64,000 nucleotides of DNA, taken from Chitinophaga pinensis. GTDB taxonomy: Bacteria > Bacteroidota > Bacteroidia > Chitinophagales > Chitinophagaceae. The position numbers were made by a program, and so were the translations under genes. The notes beneath the pieces were generated by a model that was not told where the DNA came from, did no database searches, and saw only the letters and a program-made list of their open reading frames with translations. The stretch lies in NCBI RefSeq assembly GCF_007896845.1, contig NZ_VOHS01000007.1, positions 202,547-266,546 of the forward strand. Direction: 5' to 3'. Shown here piece after piece: positions 25,878 through 58,561 of this stretch. Numbering within the stretch: position 1 is the first letter of the stretch; each line of letters opens with the position of its first letter.

Positions 25878-26510
25878 TTATTTGCCATATTTTGACCTGA
25901 CGGTCATAAATAAGTTGCTTTCATAGATGCTTTGCGGTGAGATAACCGTTTCATTTACAGGAAGATTGTCCCCATAACGTTCACGGATAATCTCTTTCAC
26001 TGGTTCACTGCTGAGATCAAATTCTTTCATCTTCTGCAATTTGCCCACTTCTACGCCAGCGGCTCTCTTATAGATCTTCCATATCAGCTCTGAGCAGTAT
26101 ATTTTATCGTCGGACCATTCGAAGTAAGCATCATAGGATTTGCCCAGCATTTTTTTGCCTTCGGCTTCCATCTTTTGCAATACCTGCGGTGTCAACTGTT
26201 TATCTGCATTTTTCAGCCGGCGTACTACATATTTTTTCCCTTCCCCATGTGAGATCCATTCGTCCAGTGGTGTCATCCGGACTGGTTGTACAGCCTCCAG
26301 TACATAGTCTTCATTTCCCACTTTCCAGATCAAGCCGCAGTGACTGAACTGCGAATGTGTGGCGAGTCTTACCGCGTGGCATTGCGGAGACATAGACGTC
26401 TGAAAAATAAGGTCCCCTGAGCGCAGCGGCGCTTCCTCTCTAAAGCCATACAATAATGTAAGTGTACTTAATGAGGTAATAACCAATCCTGTTGTGAGTA
26501 TCTTCTTCAT
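25878..26510 (-). CDS. YiiX/YebB-like NlpC/P60-superfamily cysteine hydrolase
   Basis: 210 residues with a hydrophobic N-terminal signal (MKKILTTGLVITSLSTLTLLYG). The permuted papain-like core shows LRSGDLIFQTS, then QFSHCGLIWKV with the likely catalytic His, and a later YCSELIWKIYKRA carrying the likely nucleophile Cys. Families of this type cleave peptidoglycan peptides or lipid amides. It appears monocistronic. The permuted order (His before Cys) agrees with the YiiX branch. The substrate is uncertain. Confidence 0.82.
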   Translation of the reverse strand: MKKILTTGLVITSLSTLTLLYGFREEAPLRSGDLIFQTSMSPQCHAVRLATHSQFSHCGLIWKVGNEDYVLEAVQPVRMTPLDEWISHGEGKKYVVRRLKNADKQLTPQVLQKMEAEGKKMLGKSYDAYFEWSDDKIYCSELIWKIYKRAAGVEVGKLQKMKEFDLSSEPVKEIIRERYGDNLPVNETVISPQSIYESNLFMTVRSKYGK

Positions 26511-26735
26511 ACGTAATCGGGAAACTGGATATAAGCGCTTACGTTATACACATATAAATTTAGTTAATTTTATCGCTACGCAAATGTTAAAATACTGGAA
26601 ACAGGACTATTCCTATTGTATTTTAACCCCTTTTTATGCTTTTTTACCTCTTTGGGTGAGGAAAATTGATGAATGGTAGGAATTTGCTGAGTGCCACTAC
26701 TTACTGTTTTAAGTAGCTATTGTGCTATTTGGCGC

Positions 26736-27203
26736 TTATACTTTGCATTTTGCTTCGTGGTGCACCGGGAACTTCACTGAGTTGGCGATAAAGCAAAGCT
26801 GGTTTGCTTTTTCATGTAGTGCGTTCGCCCTGTCAATCATGGCAGCATCTTTCACCGTTACTTCCGGATACAGGGTAACTCCGGAGAAATGACCGCCGCC
26901 ATCTGCTGTTTCTACCATCGTTCCGGTGGCATGATCCACATAATCAACTACTACGACGCCGGCTTCTGCGCAAAGGTGCAGGTACCAGAGCATATGGCAG
27001 GAAGAAAGGGAAGCTACGAGCATTTCTTCCGGGTTATAACGGGTTTTGTCTCCCCGGAAGCTGGGATCGGAGGAGCCTGGAATTTCCGGCTTGCCATCGG
27101 TCTGTAAGATGTGATTGCGTTCATAAGCCTGATAGGCAGCAGTGCCGGCACCTGTATTGCCGGTCCAGCGGGTAGTCATCTTATAATGGTGCGTTCCTTT
27201 CAT
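26736..27203 (-). CDS. OsmC-family peroxiredoxin-like protein
   Basis: 155 residues. The two redox cysteines of the family are in LSSCHMLWYLH and NQLCFIANSVK, and the RYNPEEMLVASLS turn is conserved. OsmC/Ohr proteins reduce organic hydroperoxides with dithiol donors. It lies 23 bases downstream of marR on the same strand, suggesting a marR-osmC operon controlled by the peroxide- or drug-responsive repressor. A second OsmC protein is encoded at 46.0 kb. Confidence 0.9.
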   Translation of the reverse strand: MKGTHHYKMTTRWTGNTGAGTAAYQAYERNHILQTDGKPEIPGSSDPSFRGDKTRYNPEEMLVASLSSCHMLWYLHLCAEAGVVVVDYVDHATGTMVETADGGGHFSGVTLYPEVTVKDAAMIDRANALHEKANQLCFIANSVKFPVHHEAKCKV

Positions 27204-27226
27204 AATGATATCAGATAAGTGCCTGT

Positions 27227-27661
27227 TTAACCATTGTATTCCGCGAGCCGCTGCAAAAGCGGAAGAAAAGCCTCTATCAGTGCCAGTTCTTCGGCAGAGA
27301 AGAGCTTATCCATTGCTTTTACCAGCCATTCTTCTTTAATCCGTCTGTTTTCATACAGGTGCCGGATGCCCTTTTCTGTCAGAGATACCACCGATTTCCT
27401 TTTGTCGGTTTCATCCATCACGCGGTTGACGCAACCCACTTCTTCCAGCCGGTTGAGGATCTGAGAGATGGCCTGTGCCGATATACGCTCCATTTCTGCC
27501 AGAGCGGAGGGTAGCAATTTGCCGTGCTGGTCGAGCAGGCCCATTGTGAGTAACTCAGCATTGGAGAAATCGGAGCTGATGTTTTGTTTGCGTAGCTGCC
27601 TGACCAGACGGGTTACCGTACTGCGCAGGGAAGCGGCTACTTCATAAGTGTTTGCGGACAT
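27227..27661 (-). CDS. MarR-family transcriptional regulator
   Basis: 144 residues with the winged helix-turn-helix (ALAEMERISAQAISQILNRLEEVG) and wing (VMDETDKRKSVVSLTEKG). MarR repressors respond to phenolics, oxidants or drugs. It is divergent from an MFS exporter and upstream of osmC. A 14-base sequence (AAAGTTACTTTACA) stands before its own start and, inverted, before the MFS start. The copy here overlaps its -7 box, so autorepression is likely. Confidence 0.9.
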   Translation of the reverse strand: MSANTYEVAASLRSTVTRLVRQLRKQNISSDFSNAELLTMGLLDQHGKLLPSALAEMERISAQAISQILNRLEEVGCVNRVMDETDKRKSVVSLTEKGIRHLYENRRIKEEWLVKAMDKLFSAEELALIEAFLPLLQRLAEYNG

Positions 27662-27678
27662 AATACAGAATCAATTTA

Positions 27679-27686
27679 CAAAGTTA
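27679..27686 (-). promoter_or_regulatory. -7 box of marR (TAACTTTG)
   Basis: Read on the minus strand, TAACTTTG matches TAnnTTTG and lies 17 bases before the marR start codon. It is embedded in the proposed MarR operator. Confidence 0.6.
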
Positions 27687-27693
27687 CTTTACA
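27680..27693 (+). promoter_or_regulatory. Proposed MarR operator, marR side
   Basis: AAAGTTACTTTACA contains the dyad AAAGT-N-ACTTT. Eighteen bases separate it from the marR start codon. The same 14 bases recur inverted at 27852-27865. Confidence 0.65.
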
Positions 27694-27845
27694 TTTTTGG
27701 AACTAACGCATTCTGAAGGGTTGATTGTCTGCTGAAATGCTATTTTCGGCTACTGACGGGCGTTTTATGTCTCCGGTAGGTGTTTTTACGGTCTTTTAGG
27801 AGCAGACGGGCAGGAAGAGAATGGCTGTGTTTCATAAAAAAGCTG

Positions 27846-27853
27846 TACTTTTG
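27846..27853 (+). promoter_or_regulatory. -7 box of the MFS gene (TACTTTTG)
   Basis: Exact TAnnTTTG match, 30 bases before the ATG. The proposed operator begins at its last two bases and covers the expected start of transcription. Confidence 0.65.
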
Positions 27854-27865
27854 TAAAGTAACTTT
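27852..27865 (-). promoter_or_regulatory. Proposed MarR operator, MFS side
   Basis: Reverse complement of the marR-side site (AAAGTTACTTTACA on the minus strand). Exactly 18 bases separate it from the MFS start codon, mirroring the other side. Confidence 0.65.
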
Positions 27866-27883
27866 ATTAATTTACTTAATCAA

Positions 27884-29128
27884 ATGTCAGTATTTCGTTC
27901 ATTAAAACACCATAACTTCAGACTTCACTTTATAGGACAAGCCATATCACTCATCGGGACGTGGATGCAACGCGTAGCTATCAGCTGGCTGGTATACCGC
28001 ATCACGGGTTCTGCTCTTCTACTTGGACTGGTGACTTTCCTCAGTCTGATACCTTCATTAGTGCTGGCTCCTTTTGCCGGCAGTTTCATTGACAGACATA
28101 ATAAGTTCAAGGTAGTCATGGTCACCCAGATCGCATTGATGGTGCAGGCGGGTGTACTGGCGGCTATGGTCTGGTTGAATTATTACAGTATGATCTGGAT
28201 CTCGGTATTGAGTCTGGCGCAGGGCCTGATAAACGCCTTTGATACGACAGCAAGGCAGGCACTGATGGTCGATCTGGTAGATGACAAAGAAGATCTGCCG
28301 AATGCCATTGCGTTAAACTCTTCTGCATTCAATGCTGCGCGACTGGTAGGACCGGCATTGGCGGGTATCATCCTTAGTTCATTCGGAGAGGATATCTGTT
28401 TTCTGATCAACTTCCTGAGTTTCATAGCGGTGATCTGTTGTTTGGTGATGATGAAACTGGCGCTGATACCAGCTTCCCGTTCAGATGTGAATATCTGGGC
28501 CGACCTGAGAAAGGGATATGAATACCTGAGAGAGTCCCCTGATCTTTCTTCACTCATAATGCTGTTGGCAGCTTCCAGTTTGCTGGTAATACCTTATACG
28601 ACCTTACTGCCTGTTTTTGCCAAAGACGTTTTCCATGGTGATGCTACAACCTTTAGCTGGTTTGAAAGTGCTGCCGGATTGGGCGCATTGTTTGGCGCTG
28701 TGTTTATGGCTACTTTAAAGCCCGGCCGTGATCTTATCAGACTGACCATACTTTCCAGCACTGTGTTTGCAGTAGCCTTACTGGGACTGGCAGTATCTTC
28801 TTCTATTGTACTGGCGTTGGCAGCTACTGCTGCTACCGGCGGCGGATTGATGATCCAGAACTCCGCAATTAATACTTATCTGCAGACGCATGCTTCTTCT
28901 GAAATGCGTGCCAGAACACTGAGTTACTACATAATGTCTTATCAGGGAATGTTACCGATCGGTAGTCTGGTAATCGGATATCTCGCCCATTATTTTGGCG
29001 TGGGAGTAGTGGTGTTTGCGGAAGGGATTATGGGTATACTGATAGTCTTAGTATTTATGTTGCATCAGCGGGGTATCAGTCACTGGATAAGAGTCCTGCA
29101 TGTCATCAGACTGCGTTACCTGCGATAG
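27884..29128 (+). CDS. Major facilitator superfamily transporter, EntS/MFS_3-like
   Basis: 414 residues, mostly hydrophobic, with 10-12 predicted membrane helices. The N-terminal FRLHFIGQAISLIGTWMQRVA and the conserved loop SFIDRHNKFKVVMV after helix 2 are typical of the EntS-like exporter branch. Proton-driven export of a small toxic or siderophore-like compound is likely. Divergent from marR with a shared operator sequence, so induction by an exported compound is plausible. Confidence 0.88.
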   Translation: MSVFRSLKHHNFRLHFIGQAISLIGTWMQRVAISWLVYRITGSALLLGLVTFLSLIPSLVLAPFAGSFIDRHNKFKVVMVTQIALMVQAGVLAAMVWLNYYSMIWISVLSLAQGLINAFDTTARQALMVDLVDDKEDLPNAIALNSSAFNAARLVGPALAGIILSSFGEDICFLINFLSFIAVICCLVMMKLALIPASRSDVNIWADLRKGYEYLRESPDLSSLIMLLAASSLLVIPYTTLLPVFAKDVFHGDATTFSWFESAAGLGALFGAVFMATLKPGRDLIRLTILSSTVFAVALLGLAVSSSIVLALAATAATGGGLMIQNSAINTYLQTHASSEMRARTLSYYIMSYQGMLPIGSLVIGYLAHYFGVGVVVFAEGIMGILIVLVFMLHQRGISHWIRVLHVIRLRYLR

Positions 29129-29144
29129 TTGCATGTAATAAAAA

Positions 29145-29187
29145 AAGTGTTCAGCCTGGCGCCGCAAACTACCAGACTGAAACACTT
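29145..29187 (-). terminator. Hairpin with minus-strand T run
   Basis: AAGTGTTCAGCCTGG pairs with CCAGACTGAAACACTT with one bulge and one G-T pair. On the minus strand the stem is followed by TTTTTT, so it ends transcription of the unknown gene at 29350-29862. Confidence 0.65.
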
Positions 29188-29349
29188 ATAGGAAAACAAC
29201 AATGGAAGCAAGGCCAGGCATAGATTATGTAAAAGGCCGGTCAGACAAACAATGGGGTTGGGGATATCAGTGCAAGCAGCAGGCGCCTTGCCACTATGCA
29301 CTGACGGAGACCGCGGCTCCTGACAACATAATGGATGAGTGCTTCGGTA

Positions 29350-29862
29350 CTATTTGATGAGTACCACGTTAAATGCTCTTACGATTGTCTGCACATCACT
29401 GTTAGAGCGCTTAGTATTTTTGAAACGGATGGCAGTGAAATTATTTTCGTTTACATCCGGGAGATACACATACAATGTTTTCACTTCTCCGGTGGAAAAA
29501 AAGAGGGTACATATGCCTTCGTATGAAATAGCAGCAGGTTGCAGCTGCATATCAATTCTGAATGTTACATTACTTTGAGAGAAAGCCTGATCAAATAGCA
29601 CAAGCTCCTGATGCTGATCTCTTTCATCGCCGAATACCATTACCAGATCATCTTGTGATGTGGATAAAGGATCAATGTTATCTATTGAACCAAAAGAGGA
29701 TATCTGCAATAATCCATCTGAATTTTTCAGTTCTCTGTTATCGATAGTCGCTACCGTTGTCACGGAGCCACCGGAAGAGAGCTGGGCTGGCCTGGATAAA
29801 TAACCGGGATTACCATTATTAAAATAGGTTGCTACAAATTGGTTCATTCTTGATTTCAGCAT
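29350..29862 (-). CDS. Protein of unknown function
   Basis: About 170 residues from the ATG at 29862 (MLKSRMNQFVATYF); another ATG 15 bases on is possible, and an upstream start adds 21 less plausible residues. No signal peptide or membrane helix. The predicted content is mainly beta (VTFRIDMQLQPAAISYEG, VKTLYVYLPDVNENNFTAIRF). I do not recognise the family. It is followed by a terminator and preceded by about 600 bases without genes. Isolated position next to another poorly conserved protein suggests accessory DNA. Confidence 0.55.
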   Translation of the reverse strand: MLKSRMNQFVATYFNNGNPGYLSRPAQLSSGGSVTTVATIDNRELKNSDGLLQISSFGSIDNIDPLSTSQDDLVMVFGDERDQHQELVLFDQAFSQSNVTFRIDMQLQPAAISYEGICTLFFSTGEVKTLYVYLPDVNENNFTAIRFKNTKRSNSDVQTIVRAFNVVLIK

Positions 29863-30004
29863 AGTATATAAAAGATATTTAAGTCGTATCTGTAATGGCT
29901 GCATCGTTATGTCATGCAAGGGCATGAGCAGGGCTTGTCGCCACAGGATGCAACTCAGTTAATTGCTGCCGGCAAGGCAGTAAAATGAATGTGTTCTTGA
30001 AAGT

Positions 30005-30039
30005 GGCGCCTGCACTAAGCATGCGAACATGCAGGCGCC
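30005..30039. terminator. Perfect GC-rich hairpin in a gene-poor stretch
   Basis: GGCGCCTGCA and TGCAGGCGCC pair perfectly around a 15-base loop. No T run follows, and there is no adjacent gene end, so it may be a structural element rather than a terminator. Confidence 0.4.
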
Positions 30040-30521
30040 GTTAATCAGGAGTTTACATAGTCAAAATGTATTGCTTAACAAGATTGTTTCATGAGCTGAG
30101 GTGAAAAGAGTAATTACATAACCAAAGATTTGTACGTTACAAGATTGATTTTTAGTTGTTCAGAAGCATATTGATTGCTGCTGAACAGGGTTTTATATTC
30201 AATAGGAATGGTGTTTTATTTGTTTGATCTTCATGATTACCCTACAAAGATACAGGTGCATTACGCAGCCATCATGCGTAGTGAAAATAGCCTGAAAATA
30301 TTCTGTAAACAGGTACTGCCGATATCGCAAACGTGGACTTGATATGGAGCTTGTGCTGAGTGGTGTTGTATGCTGTGAAATGTAGGTCTGATGTGGCTTT
30401 AGAGGTGTTCAGGTAACGCGGCAATAGCCGCCGGAGGTACCGGCAGCGATAAGAGGTATTTCAGTATAAAAAGATAAGATTCACATGATTATAAACAGTG
30501 TACAATACGATGGCAAAAATA
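30040..30521. other. Intergenic region, nothing recognised
   Basis: 482 bases downstream of the DUF6266-like gene. I saw no coding frame or RNA structure of note. Confidence 0.4.
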
Positions 30522-31286
30522 CTATTCGCGTTGAATAATAGTACGCACTGACTGATGATGAGATGTGATGAATGGCAGTTGTGCTGCATGATGCGCCGTG
30601 ATCGTTTGTGTGGAGAAATATCGATGTATTACTGCCGGTATCTGCGGTGCCTGTATAGCAATGATATCGGCTACAAGATGTTGTTTGTTTGCCGACAAAA
30701 TGGCTCCGTTAAAGGCTCTTATCTGTAAGGTGATGATCAGTGTACCTATACCGGCAACATCCACAGGAAATATTGTTCCTTCAAAAGGAACGGTAGCATC
30801 AATACTGCAAGTGCTTGTTTGTGTGCCCATCACGCGGCGTGTTGTACAATCAATCCGCGTAGCGATCATTTTTATTTCCAGTGCTGTAATGCCTTTGTAT
30901 TGCCGCAATGTTTGTGCGGGTATATGCAGTGCATGATCCGCAGCAAAGAAAGGACTTACAGGGAAGAAATGATCAGTACCGGCGCACTGATTAAATCGAA
31001 AACCTTTTATCGCGTTGATTTGATGGCCGGCGGATGGAATGAGTGTCTTTGTCAGCCGGTTGACATGCGTGCTGTCGCAATGCACATCCAATGCTGTATA
31101 GATAGCATGACGGATAAATGCTGCCTTTTTACTGGCCATACCGAATCGTTGTGCGGCGCGTTTTGTTGCAACGGACTGACGTATCGTATCCGGTGTGCCA
31201 CGCAGGAAATGTGCACTTTTGCGGCGATAGCCGACTATGTTTCCCAGGCGGCCGGTGAATTGAATAACAGATGTTTGTTTTGCCAT
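30522..31286 (-). CDS. DUF6266-like protein of unknown function
   Basis: 254 residues. The N terminus (MAKQTSVIQFTGRLGNIVGYRR) follows the pattern of a Bacteroidota family beginning MAKQ-x-G-x-x-x-G-x-x-G-x-x-x-x-Y, followed by basic helical sequence (SVATKRAAQRFGMASKKAAF) and a beta-rich C-terminal half. No signal peptide. Members are often strain-specific. The function is unknown. The family assignment rests on the N-terminal pattern only. Confidence 0.55.
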   Translation of the reverse strand: MAKQTSVIQFTGRLGNIVGYRRKSAHFLRGTPDTIRQSVATKRAAQRFGMASKKAAFIRHAIYTALDVHCDSTHVNRLTKTLIPSAGHQINAIKGFRFNQCAGTDHFFPVSPFFAADHALHIPAQTLRQYKGITALEIKMIATRIDCTTRRVMGTQTSTCSIDATVPFEGTIFPVDVAGIGTLIITLQIRAFNGAILSANKQHLVADIIAIQAPQIPAVIHRYFSTQTITAHHAAQLPFITSHHQSVRTIIQRE

Positions 31287-31508
31287 AATAATGTATACTG
31301 TTTGTATGTAAATATAGCATTACCAGCTGCTGTCGGGAGACGGACAAATTGTGGATTGTCTAATGGTATTTCGGGTGTATCTGCGGATTATTTAAAGGTA
31401 ATTCGGGTCGTGTTGAATAAGCGTTAACGTGTGTCGGGTACAATGTAGAGAATAACGAAAAATATAAGTGGAAAGGCAAGGCAGTAGCCAATTTGAAAAA
31501 TAATAAAA

Positions 31509-31528
31509 GGAGAAATGGATATTTCTCC
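31509..31528 (-). terminator. Terminator closing the Ro60/Y-RNA array
   Basis: GGAGAAAT and ATTTCTCC pair around a 4-base loop. On the minus strand TTTTATTATTTTTC follows. It lies 61 bases after the last Y-RNA-like element. Confidence 0.75.
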
Positions 31529-31589
31529 CCGGTTAACAAAGAATGAAAACTACAGCTTTTACGAAAAATTCACATGCATAAGAAAGATA

Positions 31590-31700
31590 AATCAGGGTTA
31601 AATCAGCAAACGCTTTGCTCCCATGTGAGCGTCTTTGTCCGCCGTGACGGACGCAGATGGAATCGAACCACGAAGTAACGCTTGTCTACGACACCTGATT
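31590..31700 (-). ncRNA. Y-RNA-like RNA 5 (Ro60 partner), variant tRNA-like module
   Basis: About 111 bases. The basal stem AATCAGG/CCTGATT opens into an internal loop with TGTCGT on the 5' side and GATTTAAC on the 3' side, then a second stem (CAAGCGTT against AGCGTTTG). The apical part has a T-arm-like TGG-TTCGATT-CCA, a strong GTCCG-CGGAC hairpin where the acceptor should be, and a D-arm-like GCTC-ACATGG-GAGC. It contains GTTACTTCG like elements 2 and 4. The most divergent tRNA mimic of the set. It is last in the array, 13 bases after element 4. Confidence 0.75.
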
Positions 31701-31713
31701 AAAAAGGTGAAAA

Positions 31714-31851
31714 ATAGCAGGGTAAAAAGTTGGAAGCGACCATTCTAACGCTCTACCAACTGAGCTACCTGCGACAATGTCAGACAGGGGAGGGCTCGAA
31801 CCTCCGACCCATAGATTTTCCGAAGTAACGCTTTCCTACGACACCTGCTAT
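31714..31851 (-). ncRNA. Y-RNA-like RNA 4, canonical permuted tRNA-like module
   Basis: About 138 bases. Basal stem ATAGCAGG/CCTGCTAT; internal loop with TGTCGT opposite AACTTTTTAC; inner stem GGAAAGCG/CGCTTCC with one bulged A. Then a circularly permuted tRNA: T arm GGAGG-TTCGAGC-CCTCC, a closed acceptor hairpin (CCTG..TGAC-ATT-GTCG..CAGG), and D arm GCTC-AGTTGGTA-GAGC. The T loop and the GG of the D loop are exactly those of true tRNAs, so an elbow contact can form. The anticodon arm is replaced by the Ro60-binding stem, as known for bacterial YrlA RNAs. Confidence 0.88.
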
Positions 31852-31861
31852 AAGCACTTAT

Positions 31862-32009
31862 AAGAACGGGGTAATATCAGAGAAATAATTGTTTGGATCT
31901 CTGCCTATGCACTCGGCCACCCGTCTTGCGACGGAGGGGGATTTCAACCCCCGTAGGAGATTTTGTCGGTTTGGAGTCGATGTATTATTTCTCTACGACA
32001 CCCATTCTT
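31862..32009 (-). ncRNA. Y-RNA-like RNA 3, class II (Leu/Ser-like) tRNA mimic
   Basis: About 148 bases, the longest. Basal stem AAGAATGGG/CCCGTTCTT; loop with TGTCGT opposite GATATTAC; perfect 11-bp inner stem AGAGAAATAAT/ATTATTTCTCT. T arm GGGGG-TTGAAAT-CCCCC; acceptor hairpin CCGTC-GCAA-GACGG closed by a GNRA tetraloop; D-arm-like TGGCCGAGTGCATAGGC resembling tRNA-Leu/Ser. An extra stretch before the T arm (TCG...CGA) can form a small variable-arm hairpin. It is the only element lacking ACTTCG. Confidence 0.85.
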
Positions 32010-32021
32010 AAAAATTTAAAA

Positions 32022-32108
32022 CATAAACAACAGAGGTAACAGCCGGAAGTGTTTGTAGTTCTACCTAAAAGAGCGAAGTAACACTTTCCCACGACACTCG
32101 TTGTTATG
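32022..32108 (-). ncRNA. Y-RNA-like RNA 2, minimal form without tRNA-like module
   Basis: About 87 bases. Basal stem CATAA..CAACGAG against CTCTGTTG..TTATG; internal loop with TGTCGT opposite GGCTGTTAC; inner stem GGAAAGTGTT/AACACTTCC with the same bulged A as element 4. The apical part holds only ACTTCG and a small hairpin (GTAG-AA-CTAC). There is no T or D arm. It keeps all features expected for Ro60 binding but lacks the effector module. Confidence 0.8.
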
Positions 32109-32115
32109 TTGGATT

Positions 32116-32247
32116 AACAGGATAAAAACCGATAAACCTTTTTCAAATACGTGCGCTACTATTGCGCTACCTGCCTTGCGACAAGATGGGATTTGCACCC
32201 ACAACCCCGTATTCCCAACGAAGTAAGATTTATCAACGACACCTGTT
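32116..32247 (-). ncRNA. Y-RNA-like RNA 1, first of five after Ro60
   Basis: About 132 bases. Basal stem AACAGG/CCTGTT; loop with TGTCGT opposite GGTTTTTAT; 12-bp inner stem TTGATAAATCTT/AAGGTTTATCGG. The tRNA-like module has T arm GTGGG-TGCAAAT-CCCAT, acceptor hairpin CTTG-TCG-CAAG and D arm GCGC-AATAGTA-GCGC. The D loop lacks the usual GG, so the mimicry is looser than in element 4. It starts 12 bases after the Ro60 terminator hairpin, leaving little room for its own promoter. Confidence 0.85.
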
Positions 32248-32258
32248 GTCCGGTTATA

Positions 32259-32287
32259 ATACATCTCTCCCTTTTGGAGGGATGTAT
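32259..32287 (-). terminator. Hairpin after the Ro60 gene
   Basis: ATACATC pairs with GATGTAT, and CTCC with GGAG inside. On the minus strand it lies 25 bases after the Ro60 stop. No long T run follows (TATAAC), so it may be leaky, or it may be a processing site that lets the Y-RNA array be co-transcribed. Confidence 0.6.
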
Positions 32288-32312
32288 GAATCAGGTTAAC
32301 AAGCATGAATTG

Positions 32313-33839
32313 CTATAGAGCAAGACCGGCAATTTCAGTGATAGCGTCACCTCCCCGGTCAATCGCGTCCAATATTCCGAAGATCTTGTCGCTCCATCCC
32401 GCAATGAGGAAAACATCATCCTGACGCACATCCAGAGGTACGGTGTTGTAACCCGCCAGATTGAACAGGTACAGCTTTGCGTTTGGCGCTATCTGCTTGT
32501 ACTTTGCCCATTTAGCTGACATACTGTTGGATGCAGCGGCGTTGCCGGTGTTGCTATCCCACAGCTGTCCGTCGGTAAATAGCATTATTTTGTCAGCTAC
32601 ATATCTTTGATTGATCAGATCATCCAGCACGAGATAGCCGTTAGTGGAGTAACCCACTTCACCTTCTCTTCTGTAGAACTCATCGACATTACCGAGAATA
32701 TTATCAGGAGACATGCTCACTCTTTTCCATGTATCACCGAACATACCTGTGATGACGTGTTGGCACTTATGCTGTAACAGCATGGCCAGTAACAGTCCGA
32801 TATCATACAGTAGTACGGTACTCTTTGGAGATACAGGTTGCTGCATAGAACCGGATACGTCACATGCGATGACTACTTTTGTATGCTCGTCAAATCCTTT
32901 CAGGTGTTCAACACTGGTCTGCAATGCTTTTTCCAGTGCTCTTTTCAATTCAATGATATTACCGTGCTGTATGTTCCTGATTTCTCTGTAAGCAGACAGG
33001 TAACGGAATGGCAACTGCTTTGCATGCATGACCGCCTTTTTATCGGCCAGCATCTCAGATACCTTCATCAGGTATTTTGTATCGACATTGTAATCAAGCA
33101 TGTTACGCAGGTTTCGCAATGCCGCCATGTATCCCAGTTTTCCGCTTTCTATCAGTTCAGTCCATACCCATCTGAATGCTTCTTTTTTAGCATATTCAGA
33201 ATCGTATTTTGCCTGACCTGCTGCAGACAAGGCCGTTTCCCATGTATAAGGCGTATCCAGATTATCCTGTACGATCTTATCGAACAGCGCCTGCTGCTTG
33301 TCATCCTTAGCTTTCGGATGTACAATGAAGAGGGCATCTTTTAATGTGATGGCCGTCTTACGGTTATATTTAGCGAACTGGTATTCATCAAATTTATTGA
33401 AGGCGACAGCAAGTCCTTTCTGCAGCTGTTTACTCAGATTATTGAGCTTTTTAGTCTCTTTTCTTTCGTTTGCCACCGCATAGTAAGCCAGTACTTCTGT
33501 AATTTCGTCGGCCCGCTGGATAACGCGTCCAGTCAGTTTTCCTACCAGATCGTCTCCTTTGTGCACCTTTGCCAGTTCTACTGTCAATACCATTGGTACT
33601 GAACGCAGATACATCTTTTCTCTGGTGTAAACTGCCAGTCTTGCTACGAAGCCGGGATCATTTTTAGCGATCAGTGTACGCAGGCGTTCCAGCTTCTCTG
33701 TGCTTTTTTCATAAAACTGGTCTTGCAGAGAAGCGGTGACTACAGCACTGTACAGTTCCATTTCAGGTGTCAGGGTGTATGCCGCTGCTCCTTCGTGGTT
33801 GACTACTTGTTTGATAGTTTTGAGCTTGTTGAATCTCAT
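32313..33839 (-). CDS. Ro60/Rsr ortholog, TROVE plus VWA domain RNA-binding ring protein
   Basis: 508 residues from the ATG at 33839 (MRFNKLKTIKQVVNHEGAAAY); the open frame extends further upstream but without coding character. Residues 1 to about 300 form the HEAT-like TROVE ring that holds misfolded RNA ends and Y RNA on its outer surface. The C-terminal VWA domain has an intact metal-ion adhesion site (ACDVSGSMQQ, LFTDGQLWD). In Deinococcus and Salmonella the ortholog works with a Y RNA that tethers it to polynucleotide phosphorylase for RNA decay and rRNA maturation. Here five Y-RNA-like genes follow on the same strand. No rtcA or rtcB genes, frequent neighbours of rsr in proteobacteria, are adjacent. 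Confidence 0.95.
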   Translation of the reverse strand: MRFNKLKTIKQVVNHEGAAAYTLTPEMELYSAVVTASLQDQFYEKSTEKLERLRTLIAKNDPGFVARLAVYTREKMYLRSVPMVLTVELAKVHKGDDLVGKLTGRVIQRADEITEVLAYYAVANERKETKKLNNLSKQLQKGLAVAFNKFDEYQFAKYNRKTAITLKDALFIVHPKAKDDKQQALFDKIVQDNLDTPYTWETALSAAGQAKYDSEYAKKEAFRWVWTELIESGKLGYMAALRNLRNMLDYNVDTKYLMKVSEMLADKKAVMHAKQLPFRYLSAYREIRNIQHGNIIELKRALEKALQTSVEHLKGFDEHTKVVIACDVSGSMQQPVSPKSTVLLYDIGLLLAMLLQHKCQHVITGMFGDTWKRVSMSPDNILGNVDEFYRREGEVGYSTNGYLVLDDLINQRYVADKIMLFTDGQLWDSNTGNAAASNSMSAKWAKYKQIAPNAKLYLFNLAGYNTVPLDVRQDDVFLIAGWSDKIFGILDAIDRGGDAITEIAGLAL

Positions 33840-34095
33840 GACCGTTTGTTTTTGTTTGATGATACAAAGTTGGATGGCATATGCGCACTTTTTTTGCGCA
33901 CTAAAAACTTTTTTGTGATTTCTTTTAAAAAAAATGTGGCTATGGCTTGTCTGCGGGTATATAATATAGATACAGGAATCGCCTGCCGGGGAAAAATGTA
34001 CAAGACATAGGGAAGAGTATCCATTTTCCGGCGATGGACTTTGTTGCAATTTTACATCGTCAATAACGACAAACACACACATCAAACATAAAAAA

Positions 34096-34632
34096 ATGAA
34101 AACGTTCAATGTTCCATCAAGAGAAGAAGTAAGTGCCAACAATCAGACACTGTTTGACAATCTGAAAAAAGGTCTGGGTAAAGTACCTAACCTGTATGCG
34201 ACAATGGCTTATTCCGAAAATGGTCTGGCTACTTACCTGGCATTATCAAACGGAAAAACATCATTGAAAGCAAAAGAGAAAGAAGTCGTAAATCTGGTAG
34301 TAAGTCAGGTGAATGAATGTGATTACTGTCTGGCGGCGCATACCTTTATTGGTAAACTGAATGGCTTTTCTGATGAACAGGTGATAGAGATCCGCAAGGG
34401 CGGTGCTTCTTTTGATCCTAAATTGAATGCACTGGCTGCACTGGTTAAGAATCAGGTGGAAAATAAGGGTAAAGTAGATCCTGCGTTGCTGGATGCGTTC
34501 TTTGCCGCAGGTTTTACCAACGAGAATCTGGTAGACGTGATCGTTGTGATAGGTGATAAGATGGTGACTAACTATCTGTATGCTGCGACAAAAGTACCGC
34601 TTGATTTCCCTGCTGCACCAGCATTATCTTAA
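34096..34632 (+). CDS. Carboxymuconolactone decarboxylase/AhpD-like protein
   Basis: 178 residues. The motif NECDYCLAAHT gives the redox Cys pair and distal His of the AhpD branch, which acts as an alkylhydroperoxidase in the antioxidant defence. The remaining helical sequence is full length for the family. Divergent from the Ro60 gene with 256 bases between, so the two could respond to the same oxidative stress, but no shared operator is visible. A terminator follows. Confidence 0.9.
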   Translation: MKTFNVPSREEVSANNQTLFDNLKKGLGKVPNLYATMAYSENGLATYLALSNGKTSLKAKEKEVVNLVVSQVNECDYCLAAHTFIGKLNGFSDEQVIEIRKGGASFDPKLNALAALVKNQVENKGKVDPALLDAFFAAGFTNENLVDVIVVIGDKMVTNYLYAATKVPLDFPAAPALS

Positions 34633-34658
34633 TAATTCTGTTTAATCATATATAGACG

Positions 34659-34694
34659 ACCGCGGGTCCTTTTACAAAGGGATTCGCGGTTTTC
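34659..34694 (+). terminator. Terminator of the AhpD-like gene
   Basis: ACCGCG pairs with CGCGGT, with further pairing of GTCCTTT to AAGGGAT inside. TTTT follows. Confidence 0.7.
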
Positions 34695-34720
34695 GCGTTT
34701 ACAGACTTTATTAAAAGAAA

Positions 34721-34749
34721 AAGGCCCCCTCGTATAAACGAAGCGGCTT
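34721..34749 (-). terminator. Probable terminator of the lipase-fold gene
   Basis: On the minus strand AAGCCGCTTCG can pair with CGAGGGGGCCTT imperfectly around a 6-base loop, followed by TTTTTC. Confidence 0.5.
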
Positions 34750-34778
34750 TACTTCCTGATTAACATAACCATAGTGAA

Positions 34779-35654
34779 CTAATATCTTCTTCGAAAACTT
34801 AATTTCTTAATCATGACGTCATCGTCTATATCGGAGATAAGGCAATTCTCGCTCAGCACTGTGTTAGCAGCGCCAAGCATGTACATGTATGTTCTGAGGG
34901 AATGAGTACAATCAGGTAACCACCCGAGGGAGGCATCCCCCAGTGAATCCAGGGGTATGCCATTGTGCACATGGTCATAACCAAATGCATCCAGCAGTGT
35001 AGGTATAAGGTCAGGCAGATTGTAATACCGTTCGCTGGTTGTGATCAGCGAATTGTGAAAAGAAACAAAAGCAGCGTCACCCACACAAGGCGATCCGAAT
35101 GTGTATAAGCGGCAGGGATGCAGGGTGTAAGCATCTCCGACAGCAAACAACGTAGCCATCGCCGCACCCAGACCGTGACCGGTACATACCATAGGTTGCG
35201 TGTCATCTTCTGACTGCATATTGGTATAATGGATGCTATATCTGATATATTTCAACAGCCCTTTGGGTTTTGTCTGCCCGGGCTCAGAAAAGGTCATTCC
35301 ATTGTACATATCCAGAAATCCGGATACGACATTTCCACTGTTATTACCAAAAGGGCTGGGAGAAGGGAGTATATCGAGCCGCTCTGCCCAGTCAAGAAAT
35401 TCGGCGGAGCCTCTTAGTGCCAGCACATAAGTAGCAGGTGCATCCGGTGAAAAGTTACTTCTGGCCAGAAAACCACTGTACGTAAGTCCTGCCTTGCCTT
35501 TACCTGTATCTTTTCTGTGGATATTATAGACCAGTGTATAACCCGGTGGAAAAAAGGGGTATTGTTCCTGTAAGGGACTTGATTCCTTTACCTCGTAGGC
35601 AGCGTCTATAAAATGAGCATATTTCAGTGCTATGGCCTGTGTTGACTTTACCAT
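34779..35654 (-). CDS. Class 3 lipase-fold protein with Ser-to-Gly nucleophile change
   Basis: 291 residues resembling fungal-type (class 3) lipases: YVLALRGSAEFLDWAERLD in the strand before the lid, a nucleophile elbow at residues 159-163, FGSPCVGD, the acidic YYNLPDLIP and a C-terminal HVHNG. The elbow reads GHGLG rather than GHSLG: codon 161 (35172-35174) is GGT instead of AGT. Without the serine, normal ester hydrolysis is not expected. No signal peptide is visible. It may be a binding-only pseudoenzyme, a recently inactivated gene, or a base-call error. Confidence 0.8.
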   Translation of the reverse strand: MVKSTQAIALKYAHFIDAAYEVKESSPLQEQYPFFPPGYTLVYNIHRKDTGKGKAGLTYSGFLARSNFSPDAPATYVLALRGSAEFLDWAERLDILPSPSPFGNNSGNVVSGFLDMYNGMTFSEPGQTKPKGLLKYIRYSIHYTNMQSEDDTQPMVCTGHGLGAAMATLFAVGDAYTLHPCRLYTFGSPCVGDAAFVSFHNSLITTSERYYNLPDLIPTLLDAFGYDHVHNGIPLDSLGDASLGWLPDCTHSLRTYMYMLGAANTVLSENCLISDIDDDVMIKKLSFRRRY

Positions 35655-35754
35655 AAACCCTCTTGTTAATCAGTGAATATGCTGTGAATTTACCAGCATA
35701 TTCACTGATCAGGGGGCCAAATGGCATAAAATGAGCTTTTAGGGGTATAAGTGG

Positions 35755-36561
35755 TTAAACCTGCGACATGGCGGGTTGAGGCTGAGGGGTTGTTTTCTTC
35801 TTTTTCAGCAGGTAATGGGCGATAATGATCTCAATCAGAGGGATCGCCATCAGGAGGCAAAGCGTGATCAGTATACCTTTCTGTATGCCTTTCAGGAAAT
35901 GATCGATCTGGATCATGGCTATTTTGGCAAATAAGCCCATCCGGATAACCTCATCGATGCGGGACGCCATCAGTTCCTTGCTGACGTCTTCATCCAATCC
36001 CAGTTTTTCCTTCAGGAGTTTGTGAATGGTGTGTTTGGCAAACTGCGCCATCCCTTTTCCTTTGGTCAGTTTTACCAGCCACGGTAAGATGACATTGCTG
36101 CCCTGTTGTAAAGTCTGCTGGTGTGCAAGCAATGAATCGTATTGTGTATAAATGACTTCAGCTACGGCGTCTATCAGCTGGTCTGTAGTAAGGGTAGACA
36201 GATCTGCTTTATTGTCCCGCAGGAAACCACTTACAGCGGCTGATGTCTTTGCGTCAATTGACGAGGGGATATGTTCTATATAAACCGTCGTGTGTGCTTT
36301 GATATCTTTCCGCAGCCCATTAAAGAAACCCCATTTCATACCGAAAAAGCCGGCGAGGAGCGGTAAGAGTACAAAATAACTATAAGCCAGTATGCGAAGG
36401 GCTGTGTACCTGCGGGGAACCAATACTTTCTTACGGAAGACGATCAGCAGGATCAGTACCAGTAATAATGCACCTATTCCATATAAAACAGCACCTGTGA
36501 TGATAGTGGCGGGATTAACAAAATCGCCAAGCTGGGATAGGGTTTTAAACATTTCTTTCAT
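35755..36561 (-). CDS. Membrane protein of unknown function with three predicted helices
   Basis: 268 residues. Membrane segments near residues 20-42 (ITGAVLYGIGALLLVLILLI), 57-75 (LAYSYFVLLPLLAGFFGMKW) and 225-252 (GILITLCLLMAIPLIEIIIA). The large soluble loop between them is helical. A basic, Pro/Gln-rich end follows. I do not recognise a family. It stands 84 bases downstream of trxA on the same strand and might be co-transcribed. Confidence 0.6.
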   Translation of the reverse strand: MKEMFKTLSQLGDFVNPATIITGAVLYGIGALLLVLILLIVFRKKVLVPRRYTALRILAYSYFVLLPLLAGFFGMKWGFFNGLRKDIKAHTTVYIEHIPSSIDAKTSAAVSGFLRDNKADLSTLTTDQLIDAVAEVIYTQYDSLLAHQQTLQQGSNVILPWLVKLTKGKGMAQFAKHTIHKLLKEKLGLDEDVSKELMASRIDEVIRMGLFAKIAMIQIDHFLKGIQKGILITLCLLMAIPLIEIIIAHYLLKKKKTTPQPQPAMSQV

Positions 36562-36644
36562 ATTACAATGCTACAATGTGAAGTACTAAGATATATTAAT
36601 TCTCTTCATACTTCATATTGCAGCATCGTTTATTATTGAACGGC

Positions 36645-36941
36645 TCAGGCATTCTGTCTGACAATCTGTTCAAGGTTATTAGCCGGTACTACGCCAGATT
36701 GACGCCATACAATTTTGCCTTGCTTAAAAAGGATGAGGGTAGGTACACCCTGTACATTGTATGCATTGGCTGCAGCCGGGTTTTTGTCTACATCTACTTT
36801 CAAAATAGTGGCGGCATCACCTATCTTCTGCTTCAACTGATCCAATATCGGCGCCTGCATTTTACAAGGGCCACACCATGTAGCGAAGAAGTCAACCAAT
36901 ACGGGTTTATCACTGTTTATAATTTCTGAAAATGTTGCCAT
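36645..36941 (-). CDS. trxA: Thioredoxin
   Basis: 98 residues with the active site WCGPC at residues 22-26, the cis-proline loop [10 protein letters not shown] and the usual fold order. A general cytoplasmic disulphide reductase that serves ribonucleotide reductase, methionine sulphoxide reductase and peroxiredoxins. No signal peptide. Slightly short but complete. Other thioredoxins are likely elsewhere in the genome. Confidence 0.93.
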
Positions 36942-37161
36942 GATCTATAACTGTTAGTCTGTATATGGTATCACAAAAAATATGCAAAAGTGCCATTCCC
37001 TGTAGTTGTGGCAGTCCCTGCTATTTTTTGAGATAGCCGGGAAGGGAGCGTGATTTCCTTTAAATTTACAGATATATCTGTAAAAAGTACAAAGGCTGAA
37101 AATCATGTAATTATGACCTTTGTGCAGCTATCTAATTCTTTAATATTTTAACGTGAATAAA

Positions 37162-38205
37162 ATGGAATACAGATTTTTAGGAGGATCAGGATTGCAGGTA
37201 CCGGTATTGACATTCGGTACGGCTACATTCGGCGGTAGTAATGAATTTTTCAAGGCGTGGGGTAGTACACAGGTGGAGGAAGCGACAAGGATGGTCAATC
37301 TTTGTCTGGATGCCGGCGTTAATTTGTTTGATACAGCGAATACTTATTCTGATGGTTTGTCTGAGGAAATCCTTGGAAAAGCCATTGAAGGAAAGCGGGA
37401 TAAGGTGTTAATATCCACAAAATCAACTTTTCCGATGAGTAATGCATCCGGCGCCAACTATCAGGGTTCGGGCCGTTCGCAGCTGATTAAAAATGTGGAA
37501 GCGAGTCTTAAACGACTGAATACAGACTATATCGATATTTATCACATGCACGGTTTTGATGGTAATACACCTGTAGAGGAGGTATTACGGGGTTTGGATG
37601 ATCTGGTGCAGAGTGGAAAGATCCGCTACATCGCGGCCTCTAACTTTTCCGGCTGGCATCTGATGAAATCATTGTCGGTATCTGAGCGATATGGGTGGAA
37701 TAAATATGTGGCGCATCAGGTGTATTATTCACTGGTAAACAGAGAGTATGAATGGGAACTGATGCCGCTGGGTGTCGATCAGAAAGTAGGGGCGCTGGTA
37801 TGGAGCCCGCTGGCTGCAGGTATGCTGGGTGGTAAATACCGCCGTAATCAGCCTTATCCTGCCGACAGTCGTGTAGCCCAGGGTGGTAGTCCGGTACCAT
37901 CGTTTGCTGTACCGGATGAACTGTTGTATAACGTGGTGGATGCGCTGGATGAAGTAGCGGCCGAAACTGGCAAATCCGTTGCGCAGGTAGCCATCAACTG
38001 GCTGTTACAAAGACCGACCGTGTCCAGTATCATTATTGGCGCGAGGAATGAGGAGCAGCTGAAGCAAAACCTTGCTGCAGTAGGTTGGAACCTGACAACA
38101 GAGCAGGTGAAGAAACTGGATGCTGCCAGTGATGCACCAACGGTTTATCCGTACTGGCATCAGCGCGGGAATCTGAAATTGAACCCCCTGCCTGCGTTTT
38201 ATTAA
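37162..38205 (+). CDS. Aldo/keto reductase
   Basis: 347 residues from the ATG at 37162 (MEYRFLGGSGLQVPVL); a GTG nine bases upstream is less likely. The TIM barrel has the catalytic tetrad region DTANTYSDG (Asp, Tyr), KVLISTKSTF (Lys) and IYHMHGFD (His), and the NADPH-binding C-terminal segment SSIIIGARNEEQLKQNL. Members of this YajO/YghZ-like group reduce aldehydes and ketones or oxidised sugars with NADPH. It is monocistronic with a strong terminator. The natural substrate is not known. Confidence 0.92.
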   Translation: MEYRFLGGSGLQVPVLTFGTATFGGSNEFFKAWGSTQVEEATRMVNLCLDAGVNLFDTANTYSDGLSEEILGKAIEGKRDKVLISTKSTFPMSNASGANYQGSGRSQLIKNVEASLKRLNTDYIDIYHMHGFDGNTPVEEVLRGLDDLVQSGKIRYIAASNFSGWHLMKSLSVSERYGWNKYVAHQVYYSLVNREYEWELMPLGVDQKVGALVWSPLAAGMLGGKYRRNQPYPADSRVAQGGSPVPSFAVPDELLYNVVDALDEVAAETGKSVAQVAINWLLQRPTVSSIIIGARNEEQLKQNLAAVGWNLTTEQVKKLDAASDAPTVYPYWHQRGNLKLNPLPAFY

Positions 38206-58459: not shown

Positions 58460-58488
58460 GGAGAAATGCTTATAAATACTGGAAATGA

Positions 58489-58561
58489 TCAGGGGACAAG
58501 GATTCGAACCCGTAACCTTCTACTTGCATAGTAGAGGCTCTTCCACTTGAGCTACCCCCGA
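58489..58561 (-). tRNA. tRNA-Ala (UGC), unusual: A33, extra base in T arm
   Basis: Acceptor TCGGGGG/CCCCTGA with the alanine identity pair G3-U70; D arm GCTC-AAGTGGAA-GAGC with GG; anticodon stem TCTAC/GTAGA with loop TATGCAA, anticodon TGC. Three oddities: position 33 is A where U is almost universal, the T arm ACGGG-TTCGAAT-CCTTGT has one extra T, and the base after the acceptor is T. CCA is not encoded. It lies 29 bases upstream of the SDR start on the same strand. Either a tRNA with two sequence errors, a divergent isoacceptor, or a pseudo-tRNA. Confidence 0.7.

What the first reader, a model, noticed from the sequence alone, without database searches (positions are those of the whole stretch)
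31590..33839. Ro60 gene followed by a tandem array of five Y-RNA-like genes
Seen: on the minus strand, directly after a TROVE/VWA Ro60 gene, five RNA-like elements of 87-148 bases lie 7-13 bases apart. Each has a basal stem, then the invariant hexamer TGTCGT (minus strand; at 32236, 32091, 31995, 31838 and 31688) opposite a T-rich strand, then an inner stem. The five basal stems differ in sequence yet all pair (AACAGG/CCTGTT, CAACGAG/CTCTGTTG, AAGAATGGG/CCCGTTCTT, ATAGCAGG/CCTGCTAT, AATCAGG/CCTGATT), which is covariation. Known: bacterial Ro60 works with Y RNAs (YrlA) that carry a tRNA-like module and tether it to an effector such as polynucleotide phosphorylase. A family of five next to one Ro60 is, to my knowledge, unusual. 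Inference: one Ro60 ring could be given different effectors or RNA clients by swapping the Y RNA.
Basis: partly seen in the sequence, partly recalled or inferred. Interest (0 to 1): 0.95.

Follow-up and report, generated by a model that had tools for sequence, protein, structure and literature searches.

The report
Five swappable RNA handles for Ro60
Next to a bacterial gene for the RNA-binding ring protein Ro60 lie five small predicted RNA genes that share one docking stem but carry different modules, at least two of them built like opened-up transfer RNAs, and they would likely let a single protein team up with several different RNA-handling partners.

Summary
Five Y-RNA-like elements follow a TROVE/Ro60 gene on its strand. 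All share the docking core (5 hits, 0 expected) and their stems covary. A covariance model of the docking stem tracks Ro60: 19 of 21 model-positive genomes in the family sample have TROVE. "Unusual" is wrong: 70 of 80 close Bacteroidota Ro60 loci have three or more downstream, though distant Ro60 genes often have 0-2.

Y1 and Y4 are tRNA mimics opened at the anticodon, the YrlA design; Y3 and Y5 resemble it by eye but failed the tRNA caller; Y2 is handle only. Members are old and distinct: 49 of 49 in nine Chitinophaga arrays match another species better than their own array.

Relatives show module swapping on the same handle: tRNA opened at the anticodon (172 modules) or D-loop (11), tRNA in normal order with the acceptor stem replaced, and a 23S rRNA segment in 5 Chryseobacterium loci. 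Expression, Ro60 binding and partners are untested.

The parts
32313..33839 (-). Ro60 gene (TROVE + vWA-like), 508 aa
32261..32285 (-). hairpin between Ro60 stop and Y1 (ACATCCCTCC-AAAA-GGGAGAGATGT)
   Evidence: read from sequence; a similar hairpin at the same place in L034-L039; role unknown
32116..32247 (-). Y1: Y RNA-like, anticodon-opened tRNA-like module
   Evidence: YrlA 32.6 bits at 32123-32230; fold z -2.9; ARAGORN calls a tRNA after rotation; R1 37.7 bits; ortholog L032 element 1, 89%
32236..32241 (-). docking hexamer TGTCGT of Y1
32026..32105 (-). Y2: short Y RNA-like element, handle with no tRNA-like module
   Evidence: R1 45.7 bits, but Y2 is one of the 57 model sequences; its best match in each of the 8 related arrays is a short element of 66-90 nt
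31862..32009 (-). Y3: Y RNA-like; module read by eye as T arm, acceptor hairpin, tRNA-Cys-like D arm
   Evidence: fold z -3.3; D arm closest to own tRNA-Cys (score 16, next 10); ortholog L032 element 3, 82%; NOT called by ARAGORN after rotation; R1 only 15.6 bits, misaligned
31714..31851 (-). Y4: Y RNA-like, anticodon-opened tRNA-like module
   Evidence: YrlA 30.7 bits at 31730-31834; ARAGORN after rotation; R1 50.1 bits; alifold of 7 orthologs gives basal, inner, T, acceptor and D stems, 32 pairs, 7 with double changes
31590..31700 (-). Y5: Y RNA-like; module read by eye as shortened T arm, acceptor hairpin, D arm
   Evidence: core match; fold z -2.4; related to L037 element 3 and L038 element 3, 75% and 72%; NOT called by ARAGORN and not hit by R1
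31507..31530 (-). terminator-like hairpin with T run after Y5; in the scanned 31300-34150 no terminator-like site on this strand between the Ro60 stop and Y5

Best explanation
This is a Ro60 gene followed by five tandem Y-RNA-like elements that share one covarying docking stem but differ in the module above it, and each is predicted to bind the same Ro60 ring and would likely bring it to a different enzyme or RNA client. Shown here: the array, the covarying stem and hexamer pairing, the tRNA-like module of Y1 and Y4, the handle-only Y2, the co-occurrence of the handle with Ro60, and the long separate descent of the members. Inferred: one transcript from Ro60 to the terminator after Y5, cut into single RNAs; binding of each handle to the Ro60 ring, as known for other bacterial Y RNAs; the tRNA elbow of Y1 and Y4 (and probably Y3 and Y5) docking proteins that normally read tRNA or tRNA-like RNA (PNPase in the known case; TruB and DusA act on YrlA), so that Ro60 delivers structured or damaged RNA to them; Y2 occupying the ring without a tRNA-like partner, as a gate or a competitor.
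For: Core 5 hits against 0 expected. Stem swap test on 386 downstream elements: total 39.0 against 27.0 with basal strands swapped between loci, better in 362 of 386; basal pairs 3-6 canonical in 381, 379, 371 and 351 of 386 with 4 or more pair types. 15 of 16 pairs with double changes in 57 short elements. Model R1: 281 matches over the 80 loci, every listed row on the Ro60 strand; 56 of the model's own 57 sequences come from these loci. R1-positive and TROVE-positive genomes: 21 and 21 of 294, 19 in both; 19 and 28 of 395, 17 in both; Fisher p 1e-25 and 1e-20, genomes taken as independent. YrlA hits. Rotation test: Y1 and Y4 called tRNA, shuffled none. 49 of 49 elements match another species better than their own array. 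Relatives put different modules on the handle.
Against: No expression, binding or partner data. Y3 and Y5 fail the ARAGORN rotation test, and R1 finds Y1, Y2 and Y4 properly, Y3 only as a misaligned weak match and Y5 not at all. YrlA scores lie far below Rfam's gathering score. Within the Y4 orthologs the T, acceptor and D stems show almost no double changes (one pair). In more distant Bacteroidota Ro60 genes the parser finds 0-2 elements, so an array is not needed for every Ro60. Four of six genomes of the genus in the family sample lack TROVE. One genome (G085) has a 4-element array and no TROVE hit.
Confidence: 0.6

Rival explanations
1. Dosage: the five RNAs are functionally equal copies that only raise the amount of Y RNA for Ro60.
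For: All five keep the same handle, and Y1 and Y4 (by eye also Y3 and Y5) carry a tRNA-like module of one design.
Against: Mean identity within arrays is 56%, and all 49 members in nine arrays are closer to another species' element than to their neighbours. One type has no module. Relatives carry rotated tRNA and 23S modules.
Confidence: 0.15
2. Decoys: the tRNA-like Y RNAs mainly compete for nucleases or other factors that attack or bind tRNAs, and their variety tracks different attackers.
For: The tRNA-like domain of Salmonella YrlA was proposed as a competitive inhibitor of an anticodon nuclease (PMC7790460, passages seen). D-loop-opened mimics in relatives keep a hairpin where the anticodon arm sits.
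Against: Y1 and Y4 lack an anticodon loop, because that is where the handle joins. Handle-only and 23S-like members fit poorly.
Confidence: 0.15
3. Structured 3' end: the elements are one long structured trailer that stabilises or regulates the Ro60 message and are not separate RNAs.
For: They follow the stop codon, and in the scanned stretch the only terminator-like site on that strand past Ro60 lies after Y5.
Against: Elements lie upstream of Ro60 in L080, L083, L091 and L095 (5-6 each) and away from any TROVE hit in G114 and G089. The handle looks like a Y RNA docking stem.
Confidence: 0.06
4. tRNA-derived repeats or decaying tRNA genes that spread beside Ro60 by chance.
For: tRNA-like arms; gain and loss between close relatives (no close counterpart of Y5 in L032, which has another member).
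Against: Covarying constant handle, co-occurrence with Ro60, a single strand in the 80 loci, conserved orthologs.
Confidence: 0.03

Closest known systems
YrlA / bacterial Y RNA (Rfam RF02553) with Rsr, the bacterial Ro60
   Same: Beside the Ro60 gene, basal docking stem with internal loop, tRNA-like module opened at the anticodon with T arm, acceptor hairpin and D arm in that order (Y1 and Y4).
   Different: Scores 32.6 and 30.7 against a gathering score of 69; five members rather than the two named in the Salmonella operon (rsr-yrlBA-rtcBA, PMC7790460 passages); no RtcB or RtcA domain in the 10 nearby proteins scanned; one member has no module.
Deinococcus Ro60-Y RNA-PNPase machine (RYPER; PMC8394870 and PMC8058203, passages seen)
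   Same: Ro60 gene with a Y RNA that could tether an enzyme.
   Different: One tether to one enzyme is described in those passages; here five handles with different modules; partners unknown.
Bacteroides thetaiotaomicron Ro60 RNPs (reported in the review PMC11277228, passages seen)
   Same: Same phylum; Y RNAs were immunoprecipitated with Ro60, so Ro60-Y RNA complexes exist in Bacteroidota.
   Different: The passages seen do not mention arrays or module types; the original paper was not held.
Human Y RNAs (several Y RNAs for one Ro60)
   Same: Several different Y RNAs, one Ro60; the review PMC4726728 (passages) reports a model in which Y RNAs regulate the target choice of Ro60.
   Different: No tRNA-like modules (recalled); bacterial Y RNAs are stated there not to be homologous to the vertebrate clades.

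Membership tests
Bacterial Ro60 (TROVE protein) | TROVE domain | tested here: met
   95.8 bits against cut-off 23
Bacterial Ro60 (TROVE protein) | vWA domain of the Ro60 type | tested here: inconclusive
   22 bits against cut-off 27.7, residues 321-485; DVSGS visible (that this is the MIDAS motif is recalled)
Bacterial Y RNA (YrlA) | encoded next to Ro60 | tested here: met
   co-occurrence
Bacterial Y RNA (YrlA) | paired ends with a conserved docking internal loop | tested here: met
Bacterial Y RNA (YrlA) | tRNA-like module opened at the anticodon | tested here: inconclusive
   met for Y1 and Y4; Y3 and Y5 only by eye, not called; Y2 has none
Bacterial Y RNA (YrlA) | Rfam RF02553 gathering score of 69 bits | tested here: not met
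   best 32.6 bits; no match in gathering mode. So not filed as RF02553 members, but as Y-RNA-like
Bacterial Y RNA (YrlA) | binds Ro60 in the cell and tethers an effector | not testable with these tools
   needs pull-down
rsr-yrlBA-rtcBA RNA repair operon | RtcB ligase and RtcA cyclase beside Ro60 | tested here: not met
   10 nearby proteins (25878-38205) scanned against Pfam, none is RtcB or RtcA; not every ORF there was scanned, for instance 30522-31286 was not
tRNA genes | recognised as tRNA in the given order | tested here: not met
   ARAGORN and Rfam gathering find only the tRNA at about 58487-58561 in the window; the permissive search gives one sub-threshold tRNA match, 20.1 bits, bridging Y4 and Y5

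The most novel reading that the evidence does not exclude
In Bacteroidota Ro60 is a general display platform: one docking handle is fused to an interchangeable set of RNA mimics, namely tRNA opened at the anticodon, at the D-loop or at the acceptor stem (so that a different face is free each time), a 23S rRNA H69-H71 segment, and no mimic at all. Each array is a kit that sends the same RNA-surveillance ring to tRNA- and rRNA-handling enzymes. The window holds a five-piece kit of this kind.
Probability: 0.45. Interest if true: 0.92.

Novelty: new variant of a known kind. Interest (0 to 1): 0.82.

Why it matters
Whether Y RNAs choose the partners and clients of Ro60 is, to my knowledge, an open question, and Ro60 is also a human autoantigen whose commensal orthologs are discussed as lupus triggers (PMC11277228, passages seen). 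Natural arrays with a constant handle and different modules give built-in single-variable comparisons: delete or tag one member at a time. The 23S-like member in relatives suggests a direct, testable link to ribosomal RNA; Ro60 in Deinococcus has been tied to 23S maturation (title of a cited paper seen).

Tried and rejected
Rfam in gathering mode finds nothing in the array; the permissive search was needed. It also gave a sub-threshold tRNA match that bridges the D arm of Y4 and the T arm of Y5 (20.1 bits, E 0.29), taken as an artefact. No phage record resembles the array DNA. tRNA isotype mimicry: the arms of Y1, Y4 and Y5 do not point to one host tRNA; only the Y3 D arm favours tRNA-Cys, so I make no isotype claim. 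My first labels P/T/S/O were too loose and were replaced by the ARAGORN rotation test. The D-loop class: of 17 elements my classifier labelled so, 11 were called tRNA after un-permuting and 6 were not; the label also catches what are clearly anticodon-opened ones. Label A also catches unrelated modules, so the normal-order class rests on Rfam tRNA hits, and those loci (L073, L099, L110) were picked because my classifier flagged them. Unrotated full elements: ARAGORN of 403, shuffled none; one of them, L057:6066, looks like a whole tRNA in normal order, and the other five were not followed up. The strict parser missed Y3 until its core was relaxed. The main bacterial Y RNA papers were not held, nor the commensal Ro60 paper or one more tried on RNA repair. 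What I say of Chen 2014 (Y RNAs near Ro60 in more than 250 species, at least one per species tRNA-like) is recalled, so prior notice of multi-Y loci is possible. Library searches listed no paper whose title or abstract start names Y RNA arrays, other tRNA openings or a 23S module; this covers only the held open papers.
Full report
What is there. The window lies in a Chitinophaga-like genome (Ro60 95% identical to Chitinophaga sp. YR627; own place G000:C7). A 508-aa TROVE protein at 32313-33839 (-) is followed on the same strand by five elements. In the scanned 31300-34150 the only terminator-like site on that strand downstream of Ro60 lies after the fifth, at 31530-31507. All five hold the core GTGTCGT-N6-10-TACWTCG, found nowhere else in the window and 0.00 times in 100 shuffles.

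Are the stems real? For 386 downstream elements (5 of the window, 381 of the 80 loci), the real pairing of basal and inner strands was compared with strands taken from elements of other loci, with the 3' partner searched anew each time: mean total 39.0 against 27.0 (basal strands swapped) and 33.3 (inner strands swapped); the real one was higher in 362 and 358 of 386. For the five window elements alone the sum is 200 against a maximum of 175 in 44 derangements. In 57 short natural elements (one from the window, 56 from relatives) RNAalifold gives 16 pairs, 15 with changes on both sides. One of them lies inside the 'invariant hexamer': its third base pairs with the opposite strand and covaries U-A/C-G.

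Is it tied to Ro60? A covariance model of the handle (R1) finds 281 matches at E<=0.01 over the 80 loci, every listed row on the Ro60 strand; 56 of the 57 sequences in the model come from these loci. Among 294 family genomes 21 have R1 matches and 21 have TROVE, with 19 in both. The two with TROVE only do hold elements by my parser, 5 and 2. Of the two with R1 only, G085 holds a four-element array with no Ro60 by tblastn in the 7 kb around it, and in the region of G181 the parser found nothing. In an even sample of 395 Bacteroidota genomes: 19 R1, 28 TROVE, 17 both; of the two with R1 only, G418 has a 130-aa Ro60 piece in a stretch that ends with its contig, and G427 shows neither Ro60 nor parser elements. 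R1 is not fully sensitive: in the window it finds Y1, Y2 and Y4, misaligns Y3 and misses Y5, and in the own-genome search it lists only Y2.

How common are arrays? The parser (score 24 or more) finds 381 elements downstream in 80 loci against 31 on the other strand of the whole loci and 18 in pair-shuffled loci; 70 of 80 loci have three or more downstream, up to 11. At score 29 or more the first two figures are 371 and 13. Of the other ten, four have 5-6 upstream (L080, L083, L091, L095), three have short flanks (L051, L056, L098), and L040, L046 and L055 have 1, 2 and 0 in a full 4 kb. These 80 are the best of 505 relatives, so they are biased towards close ones. In the phylum sample, 29 stretches had a Ro60 match by tblastn: all 13 with a full-length match at 55% identity or more have 3-7 downstream; L311 (53.5%) has 3; seven at 51.8-54.5% have 0-2 (R1 finds one each in G426 and G477 where the parser finds none); L325 (a 130-aa piece at 61%) has 1; the seven most distant (22-32%) have none downstream; no element lay on the opposite strand. 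So five beside this kind of Ro60 is ordinary, but arrays are not a property of every TROVE gene.

What are the modules? Rfam's YrlA model hits Y1 and Y4. ARAGORN, given rotated and trimmed modules, calls Y1 and Y4 tRNA in many of the variants and their shuffles never; Y3 and Y5 are not called. Alifold of seven Y4 orthologs gives basal stem, G-U/A-C pairs, inner stem, T arm, acceptor hairpin and D arm: 32 pairs, 7 with double changes, of which one lies in the module (T stem) because these orthologs are close. By eye Y3 has a T arm GGGGG-TTGAAAT-CCCCC, an acceptor hairpin and a D arm closest to the host's tRNA-Cys, and Y5 a shortened version; both are marked as read by eye. Y2 has no such module.

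Copies or types? In nine Chitinophaga arrays (49 elements) every element matches one in another species better than any in its own array; mean identity within arrays is 56%. Y1 to Y4 have clear counterparts in L032 (82-95%), Y5 does not, and L032 has another member instead. So the types are older than the species and are kept, with some gain and loss.

Swapping in relatives. All rotations of 351 modules (45-140 nt) were given to ARAGORN: 188 are called tRNA in some rotation, shuffled modules 0; the junction with the handle lies in the anticodon in 172, in the D-loop in 11 and elsewhere in 5. All ten loci with a D-loop-opened member also have an anticodon-opened one. Seven of the ten D-loop members printed begin with GG and reach GAGC within five bases, as the second half of a D loop does; then come an anticodon-arm hairpin, a short variable loop (AGGTC-like in several), the T arm, the acceptor hairpin, TA or TG, and GCTC or GCTT. 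Ten elements (nine of the eleven called by ARAGORN, plus L110 by my classifier; L084 and L172 left out) give 23 alifold pairs in the inner, anticodon-arm, T and acceptor stems, 19 with double changes; the nearly constant D stem and the basal stem were not among the pairs predicted. A third class keeps normal order with the handle in place of the acceptor stem: Rfam's tRNA model matches positions 7-64 in L099 (34.7 bits) and L110 (29.6; gathering 29), and the whole model in L073 (27.4, under gathering). L099 holds all three openings side by side; L073 does too, with the third under gathering; in L110 the D-loop member rests on my classifier alone. In 5 of the 14 loci titled Chryseobacterium, one member holds a stretch of 25-33 nt that matches 23S rRNA at 91-100% (33 of 33 in L104; E 2.8e-7 to 3e-13) inside the usual handle. 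Four other elements match the 23S at E 0.001-0.004, which is chance level: 3 shuffled elements fall under 0.01, and the best of 10 x 403 shuffles is 8.6e-5. That the stretch is H69-H71, a modified region, is recalled.

Mechanism. [quoted passage not shown] From that I infer that each member docks the same Ro60 through the handle and that the module decides the partner. The constant handle, distinct conserved modules, a handle-only member and non-tRNA modules in relatives favour choice of partner over dosage. None of it is shown biochemically here.

Novelty. Y RNAs beside Ro60 with an anticodon-opened tRNA module are known. Salmonella has two (rsr-yrlBA). I could not read the surveys that would say how many arrays were noticed before. 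The D-loop and acceptor openings and the 23S segment on the same handle did not appear in the titles and abstract starts listed by the library searches made. I rate it a new variant of a known kind.

Noticed in passing
L033:5829-6015 and L032 (near 5623, start cut), L043, L044, L047, L050, L056 (before the array); L066, L078, L101, L109 (elsewhere in the locus): A different conserved RNA-like element of about 190 nt: acceptor- and D-arm-like start, about 110 nt insert with AGTAGGGAAGCGTATTTA, then a T arm. The 18-base motif is in 11 of the 80 loci; in 30 genomes of the genus 4 near-full matches and 1 partial, own genome only a 27-base match; no Rfam match at E<=1 for the L043 copy.
   Followed up: partly
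28 of the 80 loci, e.g. L075:7774 onwards: A Y RNA type found once per array in 28 loci, GGGGAGGAATAGC...T arm CCGGTTCGACTCCGG...GCCCC; it has a T loop but I could not say what it resembles.
   Followed up: partly
L172 (G085), L174 and L177 (G114), L175 (G089): Y-like elements away from any TROVE hit: G085 has a four-element array and no TROVE match in a genome given as 99% complete; G114 and G089 have extra sets far from their Ro60.
   Followed up: partly
L197 and L202 (IMG/VR contigs): Contigs filed as viral carry a Ro60 (47% and 44% identical) with Y-like elements, eight by the parser and five by R1 in L197; whether they are truly viral was not checked.
   Followed up: partly
window 58487-58561 (-): A tRNA-Ala(tgc) call of only 30.4 bits, the weakest of 62 tRNA matches in the genome; possibly decayed.
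   Followed up: no
L156 (G000:C19:86050-86550): Three unusual tRNA-Trp(cca) genes in a row, unlike the other tRNA-Trp of the genome.
   Followed up: no
L034-L039, and window 32261-32285: A hairpin between the Ro60 stop codon and the first Y element recurs in relatives without a clear T run; possible processing site or partial terminator.
   Followed up: no
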